Source: Gammaproteobacteria bacterium (GTDB lineage: Bacteria > Pseudomonadota > Gammaproteobacteria > DSM-16500). From it: DNA of 16,551 bases. Shown in pieces: positions 7,493 through 16,551 of the stretch. The position numbers and the translations under genes are program-made. The notes beneath the pieces are model-generated. The model was not told the DNA's origin. It worked only from the letters and a program-made list of their open reading frames with translations, and ran no database searches. How positions within the stretch are numbered: position 1 is the stretch's first letter; every line of letters starts with the position of its first letter. Location of the stretch: the NCBI GenBank assembly GCA_004322325.1, contig SCTP01000201.1:1-16551 (forward strand). The letters run 5' to 3'.

Positions 7493-8067
7493 TGAAACGA
7501 ATTCCATGGCTGTTATTGATAAGTCTTTGTTCTACTTTCGCTTATGGTGCGAATCAAAGTGATTTAGAAAAATTAATCAACTTTCAAAAAGCGCAAAGCA
7601 GCCATGTGGATTTATCGCATGCGGATTTACGTAATTATATTTTTGTATCGAGTAAAATTGATTTACAACAAGCGAATTTATCTTATAGCAATTTATCCGG
7701 TGTTGATTTATCGAAAATGAATTTAAGTGGCGCGGACTTAAGTTACACAGATCTTTCGAATGCAAAATTAAATCAAACCATTTTAACCGATGCGAATCTT
7801 AATCATGCTAATTTGTCCAACGCAGAGTTGCAGAAAAGTGATTTTTCACGGGCGAATTTGAGTTTTGCTAATTTAATGTCGGCAAAGTTACAGCAAGCGA
7901 TGCTTGCGAAAGCGGATTTGACTTGTGCGGATTTGGATCAGGCGGATTTGACGCAGTCTAATTTCACGGATACCACGATTTCGGGAGCGTCGTTTGTGAA
8001 TACGGTGACAGCGGATATTGTGGGGTATGAGTCGGTGGTGGATGGGAAGGTGGGGTGTGAGGGATAA
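7492..8067 (+). CDS. Exported pentapeptide-repeat protein
   Basis: 191 residues. Residues 1-20 form a signal peptide (MKRIPWLLLISLCSTFAYGA), so the protein is expected in the periplasm or outside the cell. From about 38 to 170 it consists of tandem A(D/N)LxX pentapeptides (examples: HADLR, ANLSY, VDLSK, ADLSY, ANLNH, ADLTC), which fold as a right-handed four-sided beta helix. The C-terminal tail leaves the repeat and has a Cys near the end (GCEG). Being exported, it is not a gyrase-protecting Qnr-type protein. It starts inside the murA stop codon, so it is very likely translated from the murA transcript. Function unknown. Confidence 0.88.
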
Positions 8068-9256
8068 TCAAGAAAAACTCTATTCATTATTTCCTTTCCT
8101 GCTCGTATTCTACGAAATCACTAATTATCTTGCTAATGATATGTATCTGCCCGCTTTACCTCACCTTGCTGCAGATTTGTCGATTCCTACCCATTTAGCG
8201 CAACAAACATTAACCGCCTGGTTTCTTGGCACGACTTCGTTACAACTTATTTTAGGGCCATTTTCAGATCGATTTGGTAGAAGGTTAGTGTTACTAGGTG
8301 GAGGAGTGGTTTTCATTATCTCAACTATCATTTGTGCACTGACTGCTAATATACAAGTTTTATTAACCGCACGCTTTTTTCAAGGATGTGCTATTTGTAC
8401 CATTGGCACCGCTGGTTATTCGAGTATTCATGAAATTTTCGATAGGATCAAAGCAATAAAAATTTTGGCTGTCATGGGTAGTATCACTGTGCTTGCGCCA
8501 GCGTTTGGGCCACTGTTAGGTGCAGTGCTTTTACAATGGTTGAATTGGCGTTGGATTTTTGGTGTATTAGCGATTTGGGCTATTGTTGGGGTTTCTCTTC
8601 TATGGTTGTTCATGCCAGAAAGTAATCCTAAAGAAAAGCGGCAAGCATTTGATGGCAGGGTATTATTAAAAAATTATGTTGCTATTCTCTGCAATACTAA
8701 ATTTATGCTTAACACGCTTATTTTTTGTGCTACTTTCTTAGGCGCCATTGCTTGGATTGCAGCAGGGCCATTTTTAGTTATCACTGAATTTAAATATAGT
8801 ACATTGGCGTTTGGTATCTTCCAGGCACTGATTTTCGGAAATTTGATCTTGGGAGCACAGGTTGTCAAACATACTATCGATCGAAGAGGTCCTGATCGTT
8901 TAATTAATATTGGTCTGATCATCGTATTATGTAGTGGTGTATTAGCATTACTATTAACTATAATTTTCCCGCACTTTCTTTTCGGTCTTATCATCAGCTT
9001 AATGATGTTTATGTTTGGCTCCTCTCTCGCATTTGGCCCAGCAACGCGTATTGCTATCGAAGCGTGCAAAGAACCGATGGGGGCTCGCATGGCAATATTT
9101 TCGACGTTGATGGGGTTGTTTGGTGTGATAGGCGGTTTGCTGGCGAGTTTTACTTATACGGGGACGTTGTTGTGGTTTGGCGTGTTACTGTTTGTTATTA
9201 GTTGCCTTGCTTGTTTGGCGAGGTGGTGGGTGGAAGTAATAAAGGCCAGAGAGTAA
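8057..9256 (+). CDS. MFS multidrug-type transporter, Bcr/CflA family
   Basis: Twelve-helix inner-membrane drug:H+ antiporter type, about 399 residues. Diagnostic Bcr/CflA signs: NDMYLPALP in the first helix, motif A GPFSDRFGRR in loop 2-3, RFFQG in helix 4 and GPLLGAVLL in helix 5. The open frame reaches back to a TTG at 8018, but those extra residues (WGMSRWWMGRW) are the read-through of pentapeptide codons in another frame. The GTG at 8057 has AAGG 6 nt upstream and gives a normal N-terminus; ATG 8042 is an alternative. It overlaps the pentapeptide gene by 11 nt at its start and the opposing exporter gene by 59 nt at its end. Substrate unknown. Confidence 0.85.
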   Translation: MRDNQEKLYSLFPFLLVFYEITNYLANDMYLPALPHLAADLSIPTHLAQQTLTAWFLGTTSLQLILGPFSDRFGRRLVLLGGGVVFIISTIICALTANIQVLLTARFFQGCAICTIGTAGYSSIHEIFDRIKAIKILAVMGSITVLAPAFGPLLGAVLLQWLNWRWIFGVLAIWAIVGVSLLWLFMPESNPKEKRQAFDGRVLLKNYVAILCNTKFMLNTLIFCATFLGAIAWIAAGPFLVITEFKYSTLAFGIFQALIFGNLILGAQVVKHTIDRRGPDRLINIGLIIVLCSGVLALLLTIIFPHFLFGLIISLMMFMFGSSLAFGPATRIAIEACKEPMGARMAIFSTLMGLFGVIGGLLASFTYTGTLLWFGVLLFVISCLACLARWWVEVIKARE

Positions 9257-10418
9257 AGAAAATCAAAATAGAGCCTATCACAGACCATAAAATAAGATTT
9301 TGTAGCCCTACTTGCTTTGCAAAAGCCGAAACAAAAAAACCAGAAAAGGGCATCGCCATTTTTATCGAAAACATAATAACCCCCACCGTTACACCAAAAT
9401 CAGCGCTGGGAATTAATTTTACTCGGTAGGTTCTGGTCATCACATTCGTCAACATTACACCAGCTATGAGCAGGGCATAGAACAAAGTATATATTTCATA
9501 AGCTGGCGCTTGTGAAAGTAAGATAGCGCTTGCCAGAAAAATTGAAATCCCTATAAATCCAATGATTTTAACAGTAAAATAACGAGTTAAAAAAGAAACC
9601 AGCGATAACGTTCCAATAGTTACTCCACCAGCTATAGAATACATCAGACTTAGCTTTTGGTCTGATGCTTGAAATACCCCCTTAATAATGACAGGATTAA
9701 GTGTAAGAATTACCCCATAGAAAAAATTAGCAAGTATAGAAAATAAAACCAGCAATTTTAGTGATTTACTTTCCCAAATAATAGTATACCCTCGAATAAA
9801 AGATGCTAATATTTTTGCCCTAGCTTCACTATTTCTATCTGCAAGCGAATCATTAGTAAAAATAGCTTTGCTTATAAGTCCTGAAATAAAAAATAAAAAA
9901 CTCGCTGCCTCAATAAGCACAGAATATTTCACATATCCCAGCATTATTCCGCCCAGAAGAGGGCCAAGGATTAAAGATAATTGCTCACACATTTGTACTT
10001 TAGCTTGAACTTTAGGGATATCAGTTTCGCCAAAATTGTTTTTGACTGCTAGCTCTAGAGAGACTTGCGCTTGAGAGGAAAAAAAACCAACGCACCCACC
10101 CATAACAGTCAAAAGCCAAAATGTATTTCCATACTCTAGCACCAATAAGACAAAAAAGAATAAAATTATACCCGCTCGATAGAAATCTGTTTTTACATAT
10201 AGTAATCCTCCTCCTATTCTATCCCCCCATAATCCAGATAATAGAAAAGCTGTCATCCGAGATAGCCATTCCAAAGCAAAGCTTAAGCCTGACATGGAAG
10301 CGCTTCCCGTAATCTTATAAACCATCAAAGGAATGAGGAAGAAGAGTAATTGATCTGCAACCGTAGAAATTAATCTGCTAGCGAAAATAAAATTTATTTT
10401 ATTATTTTTAATATTCAT
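9198..10418 (-). CDS. MFS exporter, last gene of the putative peptide-product cluster
   Basis: 406 residues, about twelve hydrophobic segments, with the EntS/macrolide-efflux (MFS_3-like) style N-terminus: FIFASRLISTVADQLLFFLIPLMVYKITG, then SGLWGDRIGGG as the motif-A loop. This type exports natural products and siderophores. It starts 3 nt after the methyltransferase stop codon, so it should be part of the same transcript, and its inferred job is export of (or self-protection against) the cluster product. Its 3' end overlaps the convergent Bcr/CflA gene by 59 bp. Marked AT-rich codon use compared with the housekeeping genes to the left. Annotation as MFS is firm; the substrate is inference. 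Confidence 0.87.
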   Translation of the reverse strand: MNIKNNKINFIFASRLISTVADQLLFFLIPLMVYKITGSASMSGLSFALEWLSRMTAFLLSGLWGDRIGGGLLYVKTDFYRAGIILFFFVLLVLEYGNTFWLLTVMGGCVGFFSSQAQVSLELAVKNNFGETDIPKVQAKVQMCEQLSLILGPLLGGIMLGYVKYSVLIEAASFLFFISGLISKAIFTNDSLADRNSEARAKILASFIRGYTIIWESKSLKLLVLFSILANFFYGVILTLNPVIIKGVFQASDQKLSLMYSIAGGVTIGTLSLVSFLTRYFTVKIIGFIGISIFLASAILLSQAPAYEIYTLFYALLIAGVMLTNVMTRTYRVKLIPSADFGVTVGVIMFSIKMAMPFSGFFVSAFAKQVGLQNLILWSVIGSILIFFTLWPLLLPPTTSPNKQGN

Positions 10419-10421
10419 AAT

Positions 10422-11246
10422 TTATTTCTTGGCGATTAGATAATTTGCCTTGACTGGGAATGACAATCCGTTTTTTCCTATATATGGCTTAAGCGATAAT
10501 TCCAATTCAAAAGTTATTTTATCTATTATTTCCTCAACCTTATCTGGTGGCAAATCATAAATAAGAGGAGAGCCATAAATTCTATACCTCCCGAATTCCT
10601 TAATAGATGAAAAATATACGAAGTTTTCAACTAATTGAACACTAACCATTTTAAACCCCACACTCCTTGCCAATTCCTTTAAAACATGAGGGTCAGAATA
10701 GCTAAAGGGAGCATACAAACTACTTCTTGCATTATCGCCAACTATTCTCAAAATAGCATCAGAAAGACATTTATAACCTACACATTCTTCTATTACTGAC
10801 CAAACAGTAGCAATTAAAACACCTTTTAAATCCATAATTCGATAAATTTCGCTTAATGCCTTGCCTTTATTCTCAAAATACTGAATACCCTGTTGGCAAT
10901 ACACTAGTTGAAAATAATTATCATTAAACGGCAATTTATTTACACTAGCTGTCACCCAAGAAATACTGTTCTTATACATCGAGCTTTTTTCTTCTGCGAT
11001 AGCGAGCATTAAGGCATTAACATCAACCCCTACCAATTTTGTTTTATGGGAAATTTTTTTCTGGTCTAACAAATGAAGCAAAAAAGATCCAGTGCCACAT
11101 CCAATATCAGCAATTGGGCCTTTCATATAAGGAAGACCAGTTTCAACAAATAATGAATACCAAGGCGCTGAAACAGCAGGAGCGATATATTGATCATATA
11201 TTTTGGGTGAATTACCGCTGAGTTGCCACTGCGTAGATTTATTCAT
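10422..11246 (-). CDS. SAM-dependent class I methyltransferase
   Basis: 274 residues, Rossmann-type methyltransferase. Motif I is IADIGCGTGSF (residues about 45-55); the acidic end of strand 2 is VGVDVNALML; motif IV-like region is LPFNDNYFQLVYCQQGIQYF, and the post-motif EIYRIMDLKGVLIATVW is typical of the UbiE/Methyltransf_11 group. It begins 2 nt after the stop of the RRE-oxidase gene and ends 3 nt before the exporter. There is no strong Shine-Dalgarno site, so translation is probably coupled. Acceptor unknown; in this context a peptide (N- or C-terminus, or a thiol) is a reasonable guess, but a small molecule cannot be excluded. Confidence 0.85.
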   Translation of the reverse strand: MNKSTQWQLSGNSPKIYDQYIAPAVSAPWYSLFVETGLPYMKGPIADIGCGTGSFLLHLLDQKKISHKTKLVGVDVNALMLAIAEEKSSMYKNSISWVTASVNKLPFNDNYFQLVYCQQGIQYFENKGKALSEIYRIMDLKGVLIATVWSVIEECVGYKCLSDAILRIVGDNARSSLYAPFSYSDPHVLKELARSVGFKMVSVQLVENFVYFSSIKEFGRYRIYGSPLIYDLPPDKVEEIIDKITFELELSLKPYIGKNGLSFPVKANYLIAKK

Positions 11247-11248
11247 TA

Positions 11249-12247
11249 TTAGATTGCACCAAAATAGATAGGTTGTCTTGGAAAATATTTGCCCATCATG
11301 TTTTTATAATAGTCTTCAATCTCCAGCCCCATCAAATCAAACGCATGCTTGAGATCATGCAATTTATTTACTACCAAATCTCTAGTATTTTTGCTATCAA
11401 AATGTAATAAGTGTAAATTGTTCTTCAATAAATCTACATGACCCAGCTTAGCATCAATATCTTGATGGTCAAAATAAGGTTTAAAGGCATGATCTGGCGT
11501 GCTGTAATGTTCTTTCATTTTCTCGTTAAAAATTTCTAATTTATCCTCTTCAATTTCATTGGCTTCAACTAAAGCAGCCATTAATAAAGCAGATGATGGA
11601 CATAATTGAAATAACTCTCTCATGATAAACCCTACTAATCTGGTTGATAACATGGGTGTACTGGATTCAATTTCTTCCTTTTTAATACCAAGATTATGTA
11701 AAGTACGTAAAACGTAAATATTATGATGCCGCTCTTCATTAGCATATTTAATTAACAGCGTTTTAAGTTCACCTTTTGCATAGTTTACAGCCACGTCAAT
11801 GGCAGCAGGAAAGTCAGAAATATAATGATACATTTCAATCAGCCACCCAATTAATGCTTCTTTAGGTAATCTTCCTTCCATCAATTTATTGCCAATAAAA
11901 TTAATCTTTAGCTCTTCAGACCAAATAGTACAGAGATTCATAAATTTTTTATTAACCACCTCAACACTATCATCAGGCTCTATTGGAGGATAGGTAATAC
12001 CAATTTCAGACAAGGATTCAATGATGTTTTCAATTTTTTTAACTTCTATTCCACTTTTTTCCGAGATATCAGCAATACTATTATGACCAGTACAATAAGA
12101 CCTAATTTTAAGAAAAACATTAACGTCATTCACATCAACCTCAAAGGCCTCATCACTAGTGATTAAATAAGCTTTTTCATTATCCTGACTAAATCGCCAA
12201 ATATTTTCACGAAATTTTGGGTAGGTTTGGGAATCGATGGTTTTCAC
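11249..12247 (-). CDS. PqqD-like RRE domain fused to heme-oxygenase-like diiron oxidase
   Basis: 332 residues in two parts. Residues about 10-90 resemble PqqD-type winged-helix RiPP recognition elements (pattern FEVDVNDVNVFLKIRSYCTG, then SIADISEKSGIEVKKIENII). Residues about 100-325 are all-helical and resemble the iron-containing redox / heme-oxygenase-like diiron oxidase family (relatives of PqqC, UndA, CADD). Candidate metal ligands fall in the expected order: Glu138-x-x-His141, Glu228, and His261/Asp265/His270 in FDHQDIDAKLGH; Glu171-Glu172 with His174-His175 is a further conserved-looking cluster. Start is GTG at 12247, 7 nt after AGGAG (12259-12255). Inferred role: binds the 21-residue peptide encoded just upstream and oxidises it. 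The family assignment is by pattern only; the reaction is unknown. Confidence 0.8.
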   Translation of the reverse strand: MKTIDSQTYPKFRENIWRFSQDNEKAYLITSDEAFEVDVNDVNVFLKIRSYCTGHNSIADISEKSGIEVKKIENIIESLSEIGITYPPIEPDDSVEVVNKKFMNLCTIWSEELKINFIGNKLMEGRLPKEALIGWLIEMYHYISDFPAAIDVAVNYAKGELKTLLIKYANEERHHNIYVLRTLHNLGIKKEEIESSTPMLSTRLVGFIMRELFQLCPSSALLMAALVEANEIEEDKLEIFNEKMKEHYSTPDHAFKPYFDHQDIDAKLGHVDLLKNNLHLLHFDSKNTRDLVVNKLHDLKHAFDLMGLEIEDYYKNMMGKYFPRQPIYFGAI

Positions 12248-12254
12248 TGCATAT

Positions 12255-12259
12255 CTCCT
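12255..12259 (-). promoter_or_regulatory. Shine-Dalgarno site supporting the GTG start of the RRE-oxidase
   Basis: AGGAG on the minus strand, 7 nt before GTG 12247-12245. It lies downstream of the hairpin, so the oxidase is translated independently of the small peptide. Confidence 0.75.
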
Positions 12260-12283
12260 TTTTTCATCTAAATTAAATACCAG

Positions 12284-12311
12284 AAAAAAGGCCTGGTATG
12301 ACCCAGGCCTT
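12284..12311 (-). terminator. Intrinsic terminator between the precursor gene and the biosynthetic operon
   Basis: On the minus strand a perfect 9-bp stem, AAGGCCTGG (12311-12303) with CCAGGCCTT (12296-12288), closes a 6-nt loop and runs into a T-tract (T-run down to 12284). The T-tract follows only in the minus direction, so it acts on the cluster's transcript. It sits 5 nt after the stop of the 21-codon gene and about 36 nt before the oxidase start, so it would let most transcripts carry only the peptide gene and a fraction read through. No competing antiterminator pairing with the peptide coding region is visible. Confidence 0.8.
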
Positions 12312-12316
12312 AAAAA

Positions 12317-12382
12317 TTAACCGCAAATACTGACTGTCACAGCAGCTACGATTTTTTCTTTTTTAATTTTCACGATTTTCAT
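12317..12382 (-). CDS. 21-residue peptide, candidate RiPP precursor
   Basis: Tiny gene, below usual gene-finder limits. ATG at 12382-12380, stop TAA at 12319-12317, with AGGAG 7 nt upstream (12394-12390), the best translation signal in the cluster. The peptide opens with the Lys-rich stretch MKIVKIKKEK (net positive) and ends TVSICG, with its only Cys next to the C-terminal Gly. This fits a short leader followed by a very short core. It is followed by a terminator hairpin and then by a gene with a PqqD-like leader-binding domain, which is the main reason to call it a precursor. Alternatives: a regulatory leader peptide (it is rich in Ile and Val codons), or a toxin/bacteriocin-like peptide. 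That the gene is real is well supported; that it is modified is inference. Confidence 0.78.
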   Translation of the reverse strand: MKIVKIKKEKIVAAVTVSICG

Positions 12383-12389
12383 TACTGTT

Positions 12390-12394
12390 CTCCT
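12390..12394 (-). promoter_or_regulatory. Shine-Dalgarno site of the 21-codon gene
   Basis: Minus strand TTAGGAGA with AGGAG 7 nt before the ATG; decisive evidence that so short a frame is translated. Confidence 0.78.
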
Positions 12395-12490
12395 AAATAT
12401 TTATGTTTTAAACATGGGCACAAGCCCCCTTTATTCAACCACATATCAGAAAAAAAATTATACCGACATATAGTTAGAATTATTTTCTCA

Positions 12491-12530
12491 GTAAAGCATA
12501 TAGCTCTATTATATTTTGCTATATGCTTAC
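12491..12530 (-). promoter_or_regulatory. Inverted repeat enclosing a possible -10 of the peptide operon
   Basis: AAGCATATAGC (12494-12504) and GCTATATGCTT (12518-12528) are perfect 11-bp arms separated by 13 bp; the symmetry nearly continues into GTA/TAC outside. On the minus strand TATAAT (12513-12508) sits inside the spacer, so a repressor bound here would cover the -10 of a promoter reading toward the peptide gene. A second possible -10 lies further downstream at 12462-12457. Confidence 0.5.
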
Positions 12531-12632
12531 TGCTGACCACTCGAAAGCTTTACCAAAATATTTACCTTTCTCTTTGTGTGTACCTAAAAATAGGTTTTTA
12601 ATATGCCTTTAACTCTTTATAATCCTTAAATG

Positions 12633-12720
12633 TTATGCTGAAGACCCATAAAAGCATAATTTTGGTATAATATAGGCATAGTAAATAATGTCAAGACATT
12701 TTTATGCTTTTTTTATGCTT
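12633..12720 (+). promoter_or_regulatory. TATGC-box array and extended -10 ahead of the repressor gene
   Basis: TTATGCT (12633-12639) and AGCATAA (12653-12659) form an inverted repeat with a 13-bp spacer, the same spacer as the repeat at 12491-12530. Further boxes: GCATA 12676-12680, and two direct copies of TTTATGCTTTT whose TATGC cores start 11 bp apart (12703 and 12714), one helical turn. Between them TGGTATAAT (12663-12671) is a good extended -10 for the repressor gene, so the boxes flank it on both sides. Autoregulation is the simplest reading. Confidence 0.5.
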
Positions 12721-12749
12721 TTAAACTTTATTTTAGGTAGGTACATACG

Positions 12750-13388
12750 GTGCCAGTGAGTACACTCAAGAATAAACTAAAAATTTGTGATGTTTTACAA
12801 GAACTTATACGCGAGAAAGATCTCACCGTATCAGAACTTGCGAGGCAAATTAACATTCCCCAACCCACCCTACAACGAATTGTAAGTGGCAACCGCTCTC
12901 GCCCTCATCAAAAAACGTTAGAATCATTAGCGGCATTCTTTAATATATCTATTGGCCAATTACGTGGCTTAGAACCAATCACCTGGTTAAAAGACAATTT
13001 GCTTATCCGCCACCTCCCCATAATAGACCCCATACAAGCACTCAAATGGCCAAATATAAGCGAAAAAGATTTTAAGCATATTGTGATTGATAAAAAAGTT
13101 AGCGATCAGTCCTACGCTATGCAAATGCCAGATGCTTCCATGGAACCCTTAATTCCTAAAAATTCGATTTTAATAATTGACCCCGAAAAACAACCTAATT
13201 ACAGAAGTTTTGTCGTCGTCAAGATTAAAAATTATAAGGAGATACTGATCCGACAATTGATAAAAGACGCAAATAATTTATATGTTAGGCCTTTAAGTCA
13301 TGACTTCGAGCAATTTAATATGACTGTACTGACCAATGAAGATTCCATATTAGGAGTCATTGTTGAAGTTAGATTAAATTGTGATTGA
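12750..13388 (+). CDS. XRE/S24-type (LexA/CI-like) transcriptional repressor with altered dyad
   Basis: 212 residues. Residues about 10-75 are an XRE helix-turn-helix (LTVSELARQINIPQPTLQRI, then the SGNRSRPHQKTLESLA block). Residues about 120-208 match the S24/LexA C-terminal fold, with Ser130 in MPDASMEPLI at the position of the LexA/CI nucleophile. The Lys expected about 37 residues later is Arg168 in EILIRQL, so self-cleavage is doubtful and the protein may act as a plain dimeric repressor. Start GTG 12750 follows AGGTAGGT with 7 nt spacing; GTG 12756 is an alternative. Transcribed away from the peptide cluster across the TATGC-box region, so it is the likely local regulator. Resembles regulators of prophages and integrated elements, but no phage genes are next to it. 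Confidence 0.85.
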   Translation: MPVSTLKNKLKICDVLQELIREKDLTVSELARQINIPQPTLQRIVSGNRSRPHQKTLESLAAFFNISIGQLRGLEPITWLKDNLLIRHLPIIDPIQALKWPNISEKDFKHIVIDKKVSDQSYAMQMPDASMEPLIPKNSILIIDPEKQPNYRSFVVVKIKNYKEILIRQLIKDANNLYVRPLSHDFEQFNMTVLTNEDSILGVIVEVRLNCD

Positions 13389-13425
13389 TCGTTTAATAAA
13401 AACATAGCAGTCATGCGAAAACGAT
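13388..13425 (+). repeat. Loose inverted repeat after the repressor gene
   Basis: ATCGTTT (13388-13394) and AAACGAT (13419-13425) are complementary with a 24-nt loop. There is no T-tract after it, so a terminator is unlikely; it may be chance in AT-rich DNA. Confidence 0.25.
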
Positions 13426-13469
13426 AAAATGGAATATACCCAAAGCTACACGGTTAGGAGATATGTAAT

Positions 13470-13967
13470 ATGTTTAAAAAAATTTCTTCATTAATTGAAT
13501 ACATCGGATGGTTATATAAGACACAAAATGAATTACAGAAATACAATCAAGGAAGTATTTTTCGGATTTCTAAAATTAGAAAAAATAAAAATAATGAAGT
13601 TGTTTTGCATATAAAAGTCATTAATAAGCTAGATGTTTTTTTGCGCAAACCATCTGAAATTGTTGCAAATGACTATTTGCTAGAAGGATTTTCTAAAAAA
13701 GACATTCGAATGATCACCTATCTTGCCACACAAGAACTTCATAAACCAACTCACAAGATAACATCTCATCATCACGATGATGAACTAGATAAAATCGCAT
13801 TTACTTTGACAAAAAAAGATGGCAAAACCTATAATATGACCGCAGACCAAGTCTCTCAGGATAAAGAGTTAATTAATAAACTTAGCCAACAAGATGCGCA
13901 TAGAATTGGTTACCAACTAGCAATTGAACAAATGATTCTAGAAAACAATTTAATGAAAAAATTATAG
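13470..13967 (+). CDS. Hypothetical protein, unrecognised family
   Basis: 165 residues, no signal peptide or membrane helix. ATG 13470 is preceded by TAGGAGAT with 10 nt from AGGAG to the start, so translation is credible. The protein is Lys-rich, and the clearest blocks are GFSKKDIRMITYLATQEL (about 73-90), a short His/Asp cluster SHHHDDE (about 99-105) that could hold a metal, and an Asp/Gln-rich stretch before a helical C-terminus. It lies 81 nt after the repressor and 14 nt before the YhhQ-like gene, so it is probably in the operon with the transporter. I cannot assign a function. Confidence 0.7.
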   Translation: MFKKISSLIEYIGWLYKTQNELQKYNQGSIFRISKIRKNKNNEVVLHIKVINKLDVFLRKPSEIVANDYLLEGFSKKDIRMITYLATQELHKPTHKITSHHHDDELDKIAFTLTKKDGKTYNMTADQVSQDKELINKLSQQDAHRIGYQLAIEQMILENNLMKKL

Positions 13968-13981
13968 GCAAAAAATTAGGG

Positions 13982-14740
13982 ATGAATACGACAATGAGCT
14001 TTCAAAAGAAAGATTTAAAAAATTTATCGCACCAATATCGATATTTTAACTTTTTATCCATGTTATTTATTACTATCATGTTAGGAACCTATGTACTTGC
14101 TTATAAGATGGTAGCTATCGGAAAATTTATTGAATCAGGCGGAATCTTTATTTTCCCAATTAACTACGCTATTATTGACATCATCTCTGAAGTATATGGA
14201 TACCATCAAGCAAAAAAACTAATTAAGCAAGCCTTTATATGTTGCTTATTTTTCGCAACCATCGTTCCTTTAATTGCGCTATTACCAGCACCAGAAAATT
14301 GGCCTCACCAGAGTGGTTATGATTATATTTTTAAGAATGTGTTTAGATTTTTCTTTGCTAATACAATCGGAATAATTATTGGTATAACTATCAATGGAAA
14401 CCTAATTTCAAAATGGAAAATAATTTTAAAAGGAAAGTATTTTTGGTTAAGAAGCATAGGATCTTCAGCCATCGGCGAATTAATCACTTCAATTATTGCT
14501 GATATACTTGCCTTTATGGGGACCGCTAAATTTTTAGGCGTTTTAAAATTAATGCTAGCTATTTACTCTATAAAATTATTGTACGCTATATTATTAGCAT
14601 TGCCTAATTCATTAATTGTTATACATCTTAAACTAAAAGAAAAAATTGACCTACTTGACGATAATACAACTTTCAACCCTTTTAACATAAATCAAAACAA
14701 GAAAAGAGAACAGCATGTCTACATCTCGTCGGTTAATTAA
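13982..14740 (+). CDS. YhhQ/VUT-family transporter (queuosine-precursor type)
   Basis: 252 residues with about six to seven membrane segments. Family marks are clear: IFIFPINYAIIDIISEVYGYHQAKKLI in the first third, and RSIGSSAIGELITSIIADILAFMG in the second half. YhhQ in E. coli takes up preQ0/preQ1 for the tRNA base queuosine. Here the second block reads GELITS where YhhQ-type proteins usually have an Asp in place of Glu-Leu-Ile-Thr's Thr region, and the C-terminal tail is longer than in E. coli YhhQ, so another substrate is possible. No que or tgt genes are in the window. Its last 26 nt overlap the next gene, indicating a shared transcript. Confidence 0.78.
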   Translation: MNTTMSFQKKDLKNLSHQYRYFNFLSMLFITIMLGTYVLAYKMVAIGKFIESGGIFIFPINYAIIDIISEVYGYHQAKKLIKQAFICCLFFATIVPLIALLPAPENWPHQSGYDYIFKNVFRFFFANTIGIIIGITINGNLISKWKIILKGKYFWLRSIGSSAIGELITSIIADILAFMGTAKFLGVLKLMLAIYSIKLLYAILLALPNSLIVIHLKLKEKIDLLDDNTTFNPFNINQNKKREQHVYISSVN

Positions 14741-15926
14741 ATTAAGTGAATTAGAACAGCAAGCCAAATCTTTATTAGACCCAAAAGCTTATGACTTTAT
14801 TGCTGGTGGAGCTGGTGAAGATGAATGGGCGGTAAAAAACAATAAAAAAGCATTTCTTCGTTATCATCTCATACCAAGAGTATTGCAAGATATTCATGAA
14901 GTAAGCACTTCCACCAATCTTTTTGGTAAACAAATAGCAGCTCCGATTATTCTTGGCCCCTGTGCTTTTCATAAGCTAGCTTCTCCTAAAGGAGAACTTG
15001 CGACTGCGCAAGCAGCTGCAGAAGCTAAAACTATTATGACACTTAGCACTATGTCGAGTTATTCTATTGAAGAAGTCGCTAAGGTTTCCAAATCGCCTAA
15101 ATGGTTTCAGCTGTATATTTTTAAAAACCGCGCGATTACAGAAAAACTAGTTAAACGAGCAGAAGAAGCGGGATATTGCGCATTAGTAGTAACAGTTGAT
15201 GTACCTGTCATGGGAATGAGAATGCGAGATATAAACAATAAATTTTCTTTGCCTCCCGACATTGATGCTGCAAATTTTAGAGAAATAGGATTATCTGCAT
15301 TGTCCGCAAAAACACATGGCTCTAAGATCAAAGAGCATACTGATCAACAGTTTGATTCAAGCTTAAACTGGCATACAATTGATTGGCTACACTCCATCAC
15401 CAATCTTCCCATCATTCTAAAAGGTATATTAAATGCAGATGATGCTTTAGAAGCACTCAAACATAACATATCAGGGATTGTTATTTCTAATCATGGCGGC
15501 AGACAACTTGAAAATGCTGCTGCACCTATTGATGTATTACCTATTATTGCTCAAGTTATCCAAAACCGCATCCCTCTTCTTATAGATGGTGGCTTTAATC
15601 GAGGTAAAGATATTTTTAAAGCGATTGCTTTGGGAGCAGATGCAGTAATGGTAGCTCGTTATTTTATGTGGGCACTTGCAATAGGTGGTGAAGAAAAAGT
15701 TATCTCCATGTTTAAAAAATTACATGAAGAACTAATCCATACTATGCTTTTAGCGGGTTGTGCTTCTTTAGAAATAATAAAAAAAAGAGGGCTTTCATTA
15801 CTTACTGGGCCAGGTATAATCGATTTAAAATTAACAGCACTAGAAAACAAACTGAATCAGTTGAGTGAACCTTCTAATTTCTCACCGCACGTTAGAAACT
15901 CTTTATGGCTAAGAAGCAAATTGTGA
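14715..15926 (+). CDS. FMN-dependent alpha-hydroxy-acid oxidase/dehydrogenase (LldD family)
   Basis: TIM-barrel flavoenzyme that oxidises (S)-2-hydroxy acids such as L-lactate or glycolate to 2-keto acids. 403 residues, slightly longer than lactate or glycolate oxidases. All active-site residues align with constant spacing to spinach glycolate oxidase: Tyr26, Tyr134 (QLYIF), Asp162 (VTVDVP), Arg169, Lys236 (ILKGIL), His260 and Arg263 (SNHGGRQL); the FMN phosphate segment is DGGFNRGKDIFKAIALGADAVMVAR. The usual Asp after GRQL is Glu266. It starts within the transporter gene (26-nt overlap) and its own end overlaps the HAD gene. MftD of the mycofactocin pathway belongs to this same family and acts on a peptide-derived product, which is a possible but unproven parallel. 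Exact substrate unknown. Confidence 0.87.
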   Translation: MSTSRRLIKLSELEQQAKSLLDPKAYDFIAGGAGEDEWAVKNNKKAFLRYHLIPRVLQDIHEVSTSTNLFGKQIAAPIILGPCAFHKLASPKGELATAQAAAEAKTIMTLSTMSSYSIEEVAKVSKSPKWFQLYIFKNRAITEKLVKRAEEAGYCALVVTVDVPVMGMRMRDINNKFSLPPDIDAANFREIGLSALSAKTHGSKIKEHTDQQFDSSLNWHTIDWLHSITNLPIILKGILNADDALEALKHNISGIVISNHGGRQLENAAAPIDVLPIIAQVIQNRIPLLIDGGFNRGKDIFKAIALGADAVMVARYFMWALAIGGEEKVISMFKKLHEELIHTMLLAGCASLEIIKKRGLSLLTGPGIIDLKLTALENKLNQLSEPSNFSPHVRNSLWLRSKL

Positions 15927-16551
15927 ATAATCCTTGTAAATACATTTTAATTGATGGCGATGACACTTTATGGGAAGAAAATATTCTTTTTCGCAAAGTT
16001 GTTTCATCAACCGCAGAATTACTCTCTTCTATTATTCAATTACCAACAAAGGAAATTCTATCAATATTGATAAAAGAATTAGAATCTGACAACTCCCCTC
16101 TCATAGCATCCAACGCATGCGGTGTAGACGTGTTTATAGATACTTTATTATCAATAGCTAATAAGATATCCACTAACTCACCAACAATAAAAGTTAAAAA
16201 TGAACTTGAAAAACAGCGACTCTTTTTAAAAACCTACCCCATTCAATTAAAGAAAGGAGTAAAAGATACCTTGCCTCGCTTAGCGGATAAATATGAATGT
16301 ATTTTTTACTCACAAGGCAGCTATGAGGCACAATCAACTAAATTAAGAAATTCAGGGCTTGAGAAATTTTTTCGAGATGTTTTTATTACTCCCCATAAAA
16401 ATAAATACAACCTTCTTAATTATTTAACTACGAAGGAGATTATTCCGAATAAGGCGATGGTGGTAGGTAATAGCCCTCGCAGTGACATTAATCCAGCTTG
16501 TGAGTTGGGGATAAAAGCAATTTATTTGGAAAATCATGTCACCTGGCGCCG
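15905..16551 (+). CDS. HAD-family hydrolase, truncated by the window end
   Basis: Haloacid dehalogenase-superfamily phosphatase; about 215 codons seen, with no stop before the end. Motif I is DGDDT (Asp17 nucleophile, Asp19 acid/base) in ILIDGDDTLW, motif II YSQGS, motif III the Lys in TPHKNKYN, and motif IV VVGNSPRSDINPACELG, so the catalytic set is complete and the helical cap lies between motifs I and II. Start ATG 15905 overlaps the hydroxy-acid oxidase gene by 22 nt; GTG 15923, the first codon of a shorter form, is the alternative (AAGAAG lies ahead of it). The overlap places it in the same operon. Substrate unknown. Confidence 0.85.
   Translation, partial: MAKKQIVNNPCKYILIDGDDTLWEENILFRKVVSSTAELLSSIIQLPTKEILSILIKELESDNSPLIASNACGVDVFIDTLLSIANKISTNSPTIKVKNELEKQRLFLKTYPIQLKKGVKDTLPRLADKYECIFYSQGSYEAQSTKLRNSGLEKFFRDVFITPHKNKYNLLNYLTTKEIIPNKAMVVGNSPRSDINPACELGIKAIYLENHVTWR

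What the first reader, a model, noticed from the sequence alone, without database searches (positions are those of the whole stretch)
9198..12382. Candidate new RiPP cluster: 21-aa Cys-Gly-ending peptide, RRE-diiron oxidase, methyltransferase, MFS exporter
Seen: a 21-codon gene with strong AGGAG, a hairpin-T terminator, then three genes spaced 2-3 nt apart encoding a PqqD-like plus heme-oxygenase-like fusion, a SAM methyltransferase and an exporter. Known: short precursors sit upstream of their maturases, RRE (PqqD-like) domains bind leaders, and heme-oxygenase-like diiron enzymes (PqqC, UndA, SznF and others) perform unusual oxidations. Inference: the oxidase modifies the C-terminal Ser-Ile-Cys-Gly segment, followed by methylation and export. 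No radical-SAM, YcaO, LanM or MNIO-type gene lies in the window, so the fusion would be the only core-forming enzyme. I do not recognise a characterised cluster of this composition.
Basis: partly seen in the sequence, partly recalled or inferred. Interest (0 to 1): 0.92.

Follow-up and report, generated by a model that had tools for sequence, protein, structure and literature searches.

The report
New Cys-Gly-tailed peptide maturation cluster
A tiny gene for a peptide ending in cysteine-glycine sits beside a predicted iron oxidase with a peptide-binding domain, and the same pairing recurs across distant bacteria, pointing to an apparently undescribed way of making modified peptides.

Summary
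In detail: on the minus strand lie a 21-codon ORF ending SICG, a hairpin terminator, then a two-domain protein, a methyltransferase and an MFS transporter, 2-3 nt apart. In loci chosen only by homology to the two-domain protein, a short same-strand ORF ending exactly Cys-Gly lies upstream in 19 of 20 (18 of 19 without the window; L014 and L015 share an identical protein), in Pseudomonadota, Acidobacteriota, Cyanobacteriota and Bacteroidota. The twentieth, Tumebacillus, ends Cys-Ala.

AlphaFold2 and Foldseek make the N-domain RRE/PqqD-like (other winged helices score similarly) and the C-domain heme-oxygenase-like, with an intact E-H-E-H-D-H motif. Methyltransferase and exporter are accessory.

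Best reading: a RiPP-type pathway in which an RRE-HDO fusion oxidises the C-terminal Cys-Gly of a ribosomal scaffold. I saw no such family in ten searches of open-access papers (capped listings). The chemistry is unproven. A sister clade of tandem or double fusions carries peptides ending Val-His-Leu (3 of 3 loci), suggesting that enzyme clade and tail co-vary.

The parts
12317..12382 (-). Precursor peptide ORF, 21 aa, MKIVKIKKEKIVAAVTVSICG, AGGAG at 12390-12394
   Evidence: counterparts ending Cys-Gly upstream of 18 of 19 other fusion loci (L005-L021, L030, L042)
12288..12311 (-). Terminator-like hairpin between precursor and fusion
   Evidence: hairpin folding with z <= -3 after the precursor in 13 of 18 loci, window included (L015 and L042 not scanned)
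11249..12247 (-). RRE-HDO fusion, 332 aa: residues ~10-85 PqqD/RRE-like winged helix, ~95-320 heme-oxygenase-like domain; predicted ligands E172, H175, E228, H261, D265, H270
10422..11246 (-). SAM-dependent methyltransferase (Methyltransf_11/25), 274 aa, accessory
   Evidence: a methyltransferase also follows the fusion in L009 and L017 (those two are 74% alike, neither is close to this one)
9198..10418 (-). MFS transporter, 406 aa, probable exporter
   Evidence: MFS genes whose best NCBIfam hit is also TIGR00900 (all below cut-off) follow the fusion in L016 and L030 and the VHL-clade fusions in L043. By BLASTP this MFS matches L016's only at E 0.03 and L030's not at all, so they are not close relatives
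12667..12694 (-). Promoter-like site TTGACA-16-TATTAT, 11 of 12 matches, upstream of the precursor
   Evidence: 14 sites found against 16.0 expected in shuffles, so weak evidence

Best explanation
A RiPP-type (ribosomally encoded, scaffold-peptide) biosynthetic operon. The short, basic precursor is probably made in excess (hairpin terminator behind it). The N-terminal RRE of the fusion binds the leader, and the C-terminal heme-oxygenase-like dimetal oxidase (HDO), with an E-H-E-H-D-H metal site, uses O2 to oxidise the C-terminal Cys-Gly. Here a methyltransferase then probably methylates the product and the MFS protein exports it, either as the modified peptide or, I think more likely, as a small sulfur-containing fragment released from the scaffold. 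Shown by computation: the architecture, the recurring precursor, the predicted folds, the ligand motif. Inferred: leader binding, metal, oxidation at Cys-Gly, methylation, release, export. The most likely chemistry is oxidation centred on the cysteine, by analogy with FlcE/FlcD (about 0.3 for that specific kind).
For: Cys-Gly-terminal ORF upstream of the fusion in 18 of 19 loci and, looked at afterwards, the annotated 67-aa ORF ending VVLMCG before the R. etli p42f fusion, only 23% identical to the window's: 19 of 20 in all. Paralogous precursors in one locus share about 40% identity but all five rows aligned keep TVIFVCG. 26 of 29 precursor relatives found by sequence end in Cys-Gly; the 3 others (P0125, P0126, P0141) differ in their C-terminal part. 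dN/dS 0.07-0.24 in 6 pairs (short sequences, rough). N-domain alone (pLDDT 88.9): best Foldseek hit PqqD 5sxy (E 3.5e-3, prob 1.00), then heterocyclase RREs (TruD and others). Whole model (pLDDT 90.3): 3dde, CADD, PqqC, UndA, FlcD. Six ligand residues kept in 28 of 28 rows of A1 and 11 of 11 first copies in A3; five of six lost in the tandem second copies of L005/L006. HDO precedent on a cysteine derivative: FlcE/FlcD (PMC11363339, passages).
Confidence: 0.78

Rival explanations
1. Same pathway (a version of the best explanation), but the oxidase attacks the terminal glycine: alpha-hydroxylation and loss of glyoxylate leave a C-terminal cysteine amide, a bacterial analogue of peptidyl-glycine amidation.
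For: Terminal Gly in 19 of 20 loci and strict C-terminal position; characterised HDOs mostly act on amino- or fatty-acid substrates (PMC13108848 section 4).
Against: L021 ends Cys-Ala and the sister clade ends Val-His-Leu, so Gly is less constant than the terminal placement itself. No amidation by an HDO is mentioned in the parts of papers I read.
Confidence: 0.2
2. The fusion is a redox or metal sensor: its N-domain is a DNA-binding winged helix and the small ORF is a regulatory leader or a peptide ligand, not a precursor.
For: Pfam hits of the N-domain are HTH_47, HTH_NPRL3 and TrmB; winged-helix subunits of GATOR1/SEAC score as well as RREs; hairpins lie between ORF and fusion in most loci scanned.
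Against: PqqD and heterocyclase RREs lead the Foldseek list; intact E-H-E-H-D-H site; the peptide end is what is conserved across leaders; transporters or tailoring enzymes follow in several loci.
Confidence: 0.08
3. The C-domain is cofactorless or does not turn over peptide, as in PqqC (oxidase without metal, recalled) or CADD (uses its own tyrosine).
For: PqqC and CADD are among the closest folds; the natural PqqCD fusion joins the same two folds.
Against: All six HDO ligand positions are conserved; a dedicated upstream peptide exists in nearly every locus.
Confidence: 0.07
4. The Cys-Gly ORFs are chance or mis-called frames.
For: A 21-codon ORF alone is weak evidence.
Against: 18 of 19 loci against 2 in about 477 kb of control strand sequence; low dN/dS; one counterpart is annotated.
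Confidence: 0.02

Closest known systems
PqqC / natural PqqCD fusion (Methylobacterium extorquens)
   Same: Joins a heme-oxygenase-like domain to a PqqD/RRE domain; PqqD 5sxy is the best Foldseek hit of the N-domain and PqqC is among the hits of the C-domain.
   Different: Domain order is the reverse here (PqqC then PqqD there, from its name); PqqC is cofactorless (recalled) while the HDO ligands are intact here; the window peptide has no Tyr for a PqqA-like Glu-Tyr core (PqqA core recalled) and no pqqE-type gene was seen beside it.
VarO of thiovarsolin biosynthesis
   Same: HO-like protein acting in a RiPP pathway, with an MFS gene in the cluster (PMC6511847, passages).
   Different: Works with YcaO/TfuA and a repeat precursor; proposed dehydrogenase on arginine; no RRE fusion described in the passages seen.
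FlcE and FlcD of fluopsin C
   Different: FlcE's substrate is S-succinyl-cysteine, not a ribosomal peptide; FlcD has a mononuclear iron motif.
TglA/TglHI (3-thiaglutamate)
   Same: A C-terminal cysteine is modified on a ribosomal scaffold peptide and the product later released (PMC9016710, start of abstract in a listing).
   Different: There the Cys is appended from cysteinyl-tRNA and the enzyme is an MNIO (recalled); here Cys-Gly is encoded and the enzyme is HDO-like.
Microcin C (MccA/MccB/MccC/MccE)
   Same: MccB's N-domain is a structural hit. Recalled: tiny peptide modified at its C-terminus, MFS exporter, GNAT protein.
   Different: MccB is an adenylating enzyme, not an oxidase (recalled); no relation beyond the N-domain fold was seen.

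Membership tests
RiPP pathway | Short precursor gene conserved next to the maturase | tested here: met
   19 of 20 loci; L021 has a Cys-Ala variant
RiPP pathway | RRE fold in the maturase | tested here: met
   [not shown]
RiPP pathway | The RRE binds the precursor | not testable with these tools
   Needs a binding assay; no joint model was made
RiPP pathway | Chemically modified peptide product | not testable with these tools
   Needs mass spectrometry
RiPP pathway | Leader removal (protease) | not tested
   No protease recognised among the cluster genes scanned; the rest of the genome was not searched
Heme-oxygenase-like dimetal oxidase (HDO) | HO-like helical fold | tested here: met
   [not shown]
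Heme-oxygenase-like dimetal oxidase (HDO) | E-H-X-H-D/E-H ligand motif | tested here: met
   E172, H175, E228, H261, D265, H270 in 28 of 28 rows of A1; placed with the profile alignment to 3dde, motif from PMC11363339 section 10; ligand atoms were not superposed
Heme-oxygenase-like dimetal oxidase (HDO) | Metal binding and O2 activation | not testable with these tools
   -
PQQ biosynthesis (PqqC/PqqCD) | Gene neighbourhood with pqqE and other pqq genes | tested here: not met
   None shown for the 9 window ORFs scanned between 8018 and 15926 (two NCBIfam tables capped at 25 rows; window genes below 8018 not scanned)
Thioamidated RiPPs with HO-like protein (thiovarsolin) | YcaO and TfuA genes | tested here: not met
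   None shown for the same window ORFs (same limits)
MNIO-modified RiPPs | MNIO (DUF692) enzyme | tested here: not met
   None shown for the same window ORFs (same limits)

The most novel reading that the evidence does not exclude
RRE-HDO fusions are a widespread class of RiPP maturases that work on the extreme C-terminus of small scaffold peptides, each enzyme clade matched to one tail (Cys-Gly/Cys-Ala or Val-His-Leu). In the Cys-Gly clade the tail is oxidatively rebuilt into a new sulfur-containing group and released as a small exported metabolite such as a metallophore or antimetabolite.
Probability: 0.35. Interest if true: 0.93.

Novelty: new variant of a known kind. Interest (0 to 1): 0.86.

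Why it matters
HDO-type chemistry on ribosomal peptides looks nearly unexplored: in the passages I read, the RiPP examples are VarO and HO-like genes in related thioamidated-peptide clusters. If right, this is a compact maturation system (in some loci only precursor and fusion are evident) with a recognisable tail motif that lets the class be mined directly, and a genetically encoded substrate series for studying how HDOs oxidise cysteine. The sister clade with a different tail would give a natural comparison of what sets the reaction.

Tried and rejected
Viral contigs: no relative; phage records: none. 'Not a real ORF' and 'DNA-binding regulator' were considered and lowered. PQQ, thiovarsolin and MNIO membership rejected on missing neighbours among the genes scanned. 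Insertion-site test: the nearest same-genus relative of the left neighbour (G009, 73%) shares with the window only that gene, apart from a 25.7% match to the S24 regulator, so no empty site could be shown. A class search with the Robbsia fusion found nothing in 369 genomes, which shows little. NCBIfam and Pfam gave no model above cut-off for the precursors tested. PADLOC and PHROGs were not used. Families absent from the fold lists are not excluded.

Literature: 10 searches of a held PMC library; listings are capped at 20 rows, and searches matched more papers than were listed (41, 1,413, 267, 114). In the listings seen no paper's title or abstract start named an RRE-HDO fusion or Cys-Gly-tailed precursors; most subscription papers are outside the library. 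What I saw: PMC13108848 passages and section 4; PMC6511847, PMC8120280, PMC13185094 passages; PMC11363339 passages and section 10; PMC12710340 and PMC7470986 term look-ups (nothing relevant in the text); PMC9016710, PMC13419390 and PMC10940526 listing with start of abstract only.

Rows dropped: L002, L025/L028 and L026/L029 were taken as the same contigs as L013, L016 and L010 (equal contig lengths; inference). L015 was left out of the hairpin scan, L042 came later. L003 and L004 (weak hits) and L044 were left out of the tree; L005's second copy was cut by 30 residues for it. L042 (R. etli) was added after the count.
Full report
What is there. On the minus strand of the window a 21-codon ORF (12382..12317, MKIVKIKKEKIVAAVTVSICG) with AGGAG seven bases upstream is followed by a terminator-like hairpin and three tightly packed genes: a 332-aa two-domain protein (12247..11249), a methyltransferase (11246..10422) and an MFS transporter (10418..9198). 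The hairpin region folds with z -3.16. Family hits: Methyltransf_11 (1.5e-18), MFS_1 (2e-19), and for the two-domain protein only weak TENA_THI-4 and Haem_oxygenas_2 matches.

The key test. An ATG ORF of 15-130 codons ending exactly Cys-Gly-stop lies within 800 nt upstream of the match on the same strand in 18 of 19 loci (window, L005-L021, L030), with 2 such ORFs elsewhere on that strand and none on the other strand of those loci. The exception, Tumebacillus L021, has a well-placed 27-aa ORF ending IACA. R. etli, 23% identical and looked at afterwards, has an annotated 67-aa ORF ending VVLMCG directly before the fusion. So 19 of 20, or 18 of 19 without the window; L014 and L015 carry an identical fusion and are not independent. 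Two weak partial hits, L003 and L004, show none.

What the precursors look like. They run from 20 to about 110 residues (the start of L007's is uncertain) and have unlike leaders: short basic ones beginning M-x-(I/L/M)-x-K (window, L005, L006, L008, L010, L013, L016, L030), a leader with a faint HU-like Pfam hit in Sphingomonas (E 0.05, below cut-off), longer ones in Porticoccaceae and Bacteroidota, and one with a signal-like N-terminus (L007) (grouping by eye). The residues before Cys-Gly are small or hydrophobic in most. In Porticoccaceae two paralogous precursors at about 40% identity keep TVIFVCG in the five rows aligned; wider relatives vary slightly (P0118, P0123). Of 29 relatives of two precursor types, 26 end in Cys-Gly; P0125, P0126 and P0141 differ towards the end (I read them as frame-shifted). 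dN/dS is 0.07-0.24 in six pairs. Hairpins with z <= -3 follow the precursor in 13 of 18 loci; 9 of 18 meet my terminator-like rule.

Partners. Window: methyltransferase plus MFS. L016 and L030: MFS genes whose best NCBIfam hit, like the window's, is TIGR00900, all below cut-off; the window's MFS is not close to them by BLASTP, and its unrelated neighbour at 8018-9256 also touches TIGR00900, so this recurrence is only suggestive. L009 and L017: methyltransferase. L010: cysteine-desulfurase-like class V aminotransferase, MFS, EamA and radical SAM/SPASM. L013: TauE, then an aminotransferase. L005: second fusion copy, DJ-1/PfpI and aldo-keto reductase. L011, L012, L014, L015: precursors and fusion, then opposite-strand housekeeping genes (L011 scanned, the others by clustering). 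Precursor plus fusion is therefore the conserved unit. Small-molecule transporters rather than peptide ABC exporters hint at a small product (inference).

How it probably works. Leader bound by the RRE, C-terminus placed at a dimetal site, O2-dependent oxidation of Cys-Gly. The strict C-terminal position suggests that the free carboxylate is recognised or that the tail is what is released. FlcE and FlcD, which remove carbons 1 and 2 of a cysteine derivative (PMC11363339), are the nearest chemical precedent; MboA shows an HDO acting on a peptide side chain (PMC13185094) and VarO an HO-like protein in a RiPP pathway (PMC6511847). Glycine-directed amidation is a live alternative.

A sister clade. 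More distant relatives on plasmids of Rhodococcus gordoniae, Tistrella mobilis and Robbsia andropogonis are tandem or double fusions. Each of the three loci has one ATG-plus-Shine-Dalgarno ORF of 15-60 codons ending Val-His-Leu, and these are the only three in 751 kb of both-strand sequence from fetched loci (window not included; some loci overlap). The tail was seen first in Rhodococcus and Robbsia; the scan then found Tistrella's, which lies about 1.9 kb upstream of its fusion with other coding sequence between. In the tree, which leaves Tistrella out, the VHL proteins form one group (100/99) and the Cys-Gly proteins with L021 and the second copies the other; the root is by midpoint.

Distribution. 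The family is rare and patchy: at E <= 1e-20, 2 of 369 class members and 3 of 398 phylum members, the window's genome included; in the genus one other genome has a full match at 41% and one a weak partial hit. GC is about 0.46 up to 7 kb of the window, about 0.40 between 7 and 9.5 kb and about 0.33 beyond, consistent with acquired DNA but not proof.

Verdict. It is best filed as a candidate new RiPP class with a new type of maturase, chemistry unknown.

Noticed in passing
L043:3808-3861, L044:1718-1885, L045:5627-5710: Sister clade of tandem or double RRE-HO-like fusions with small upstream ORFs ending Val-His-Leu; partners include an MFS (best hit TIGR00900, below cut-off) and GNAT in L043, and class III aminotransferase, EamA and GNAT in L045.
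   Followed up: partly
L005:6965-8059, L006:7036-8055: Second fusion copy directly downstream that has lost five of six metal ligands: a likely pseudo-enzyme partner.
   Followed up: partly
window 12277-12299 (-): A second hairpin overlaps the terminator stem, so terminator and alternative stem could exclude each other, as in an attenuator.
   Followed up: no
window 9200-16551: GC falls from about 0.46 via 0.40 to 0.33; the right half, with a divergent S24/HTH regulator at 12750-13388, may be acquired DNA.
   Followed up: partly
window 14715-15926 (+): FMN-dependent dehydrogenase with a sub-threshold match to pre-mycofactocin synthase MftD; lactate dehydrogenase/oxidase models score higher, also below cut-off.
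   Followed up: no
[not shown]
   Followed up: no
L012:5338-5565; P0125, P0126: First of two Porticoccaceae precursors appears frame-shifted in some members while the second stays intact in L012.
   Followed up: no
L007:5520-5852: Cyanobacterial precursor of up to 110 aa with a signal-peptide-like N-terminus (by eye) before GATCG.
   Followed up: no
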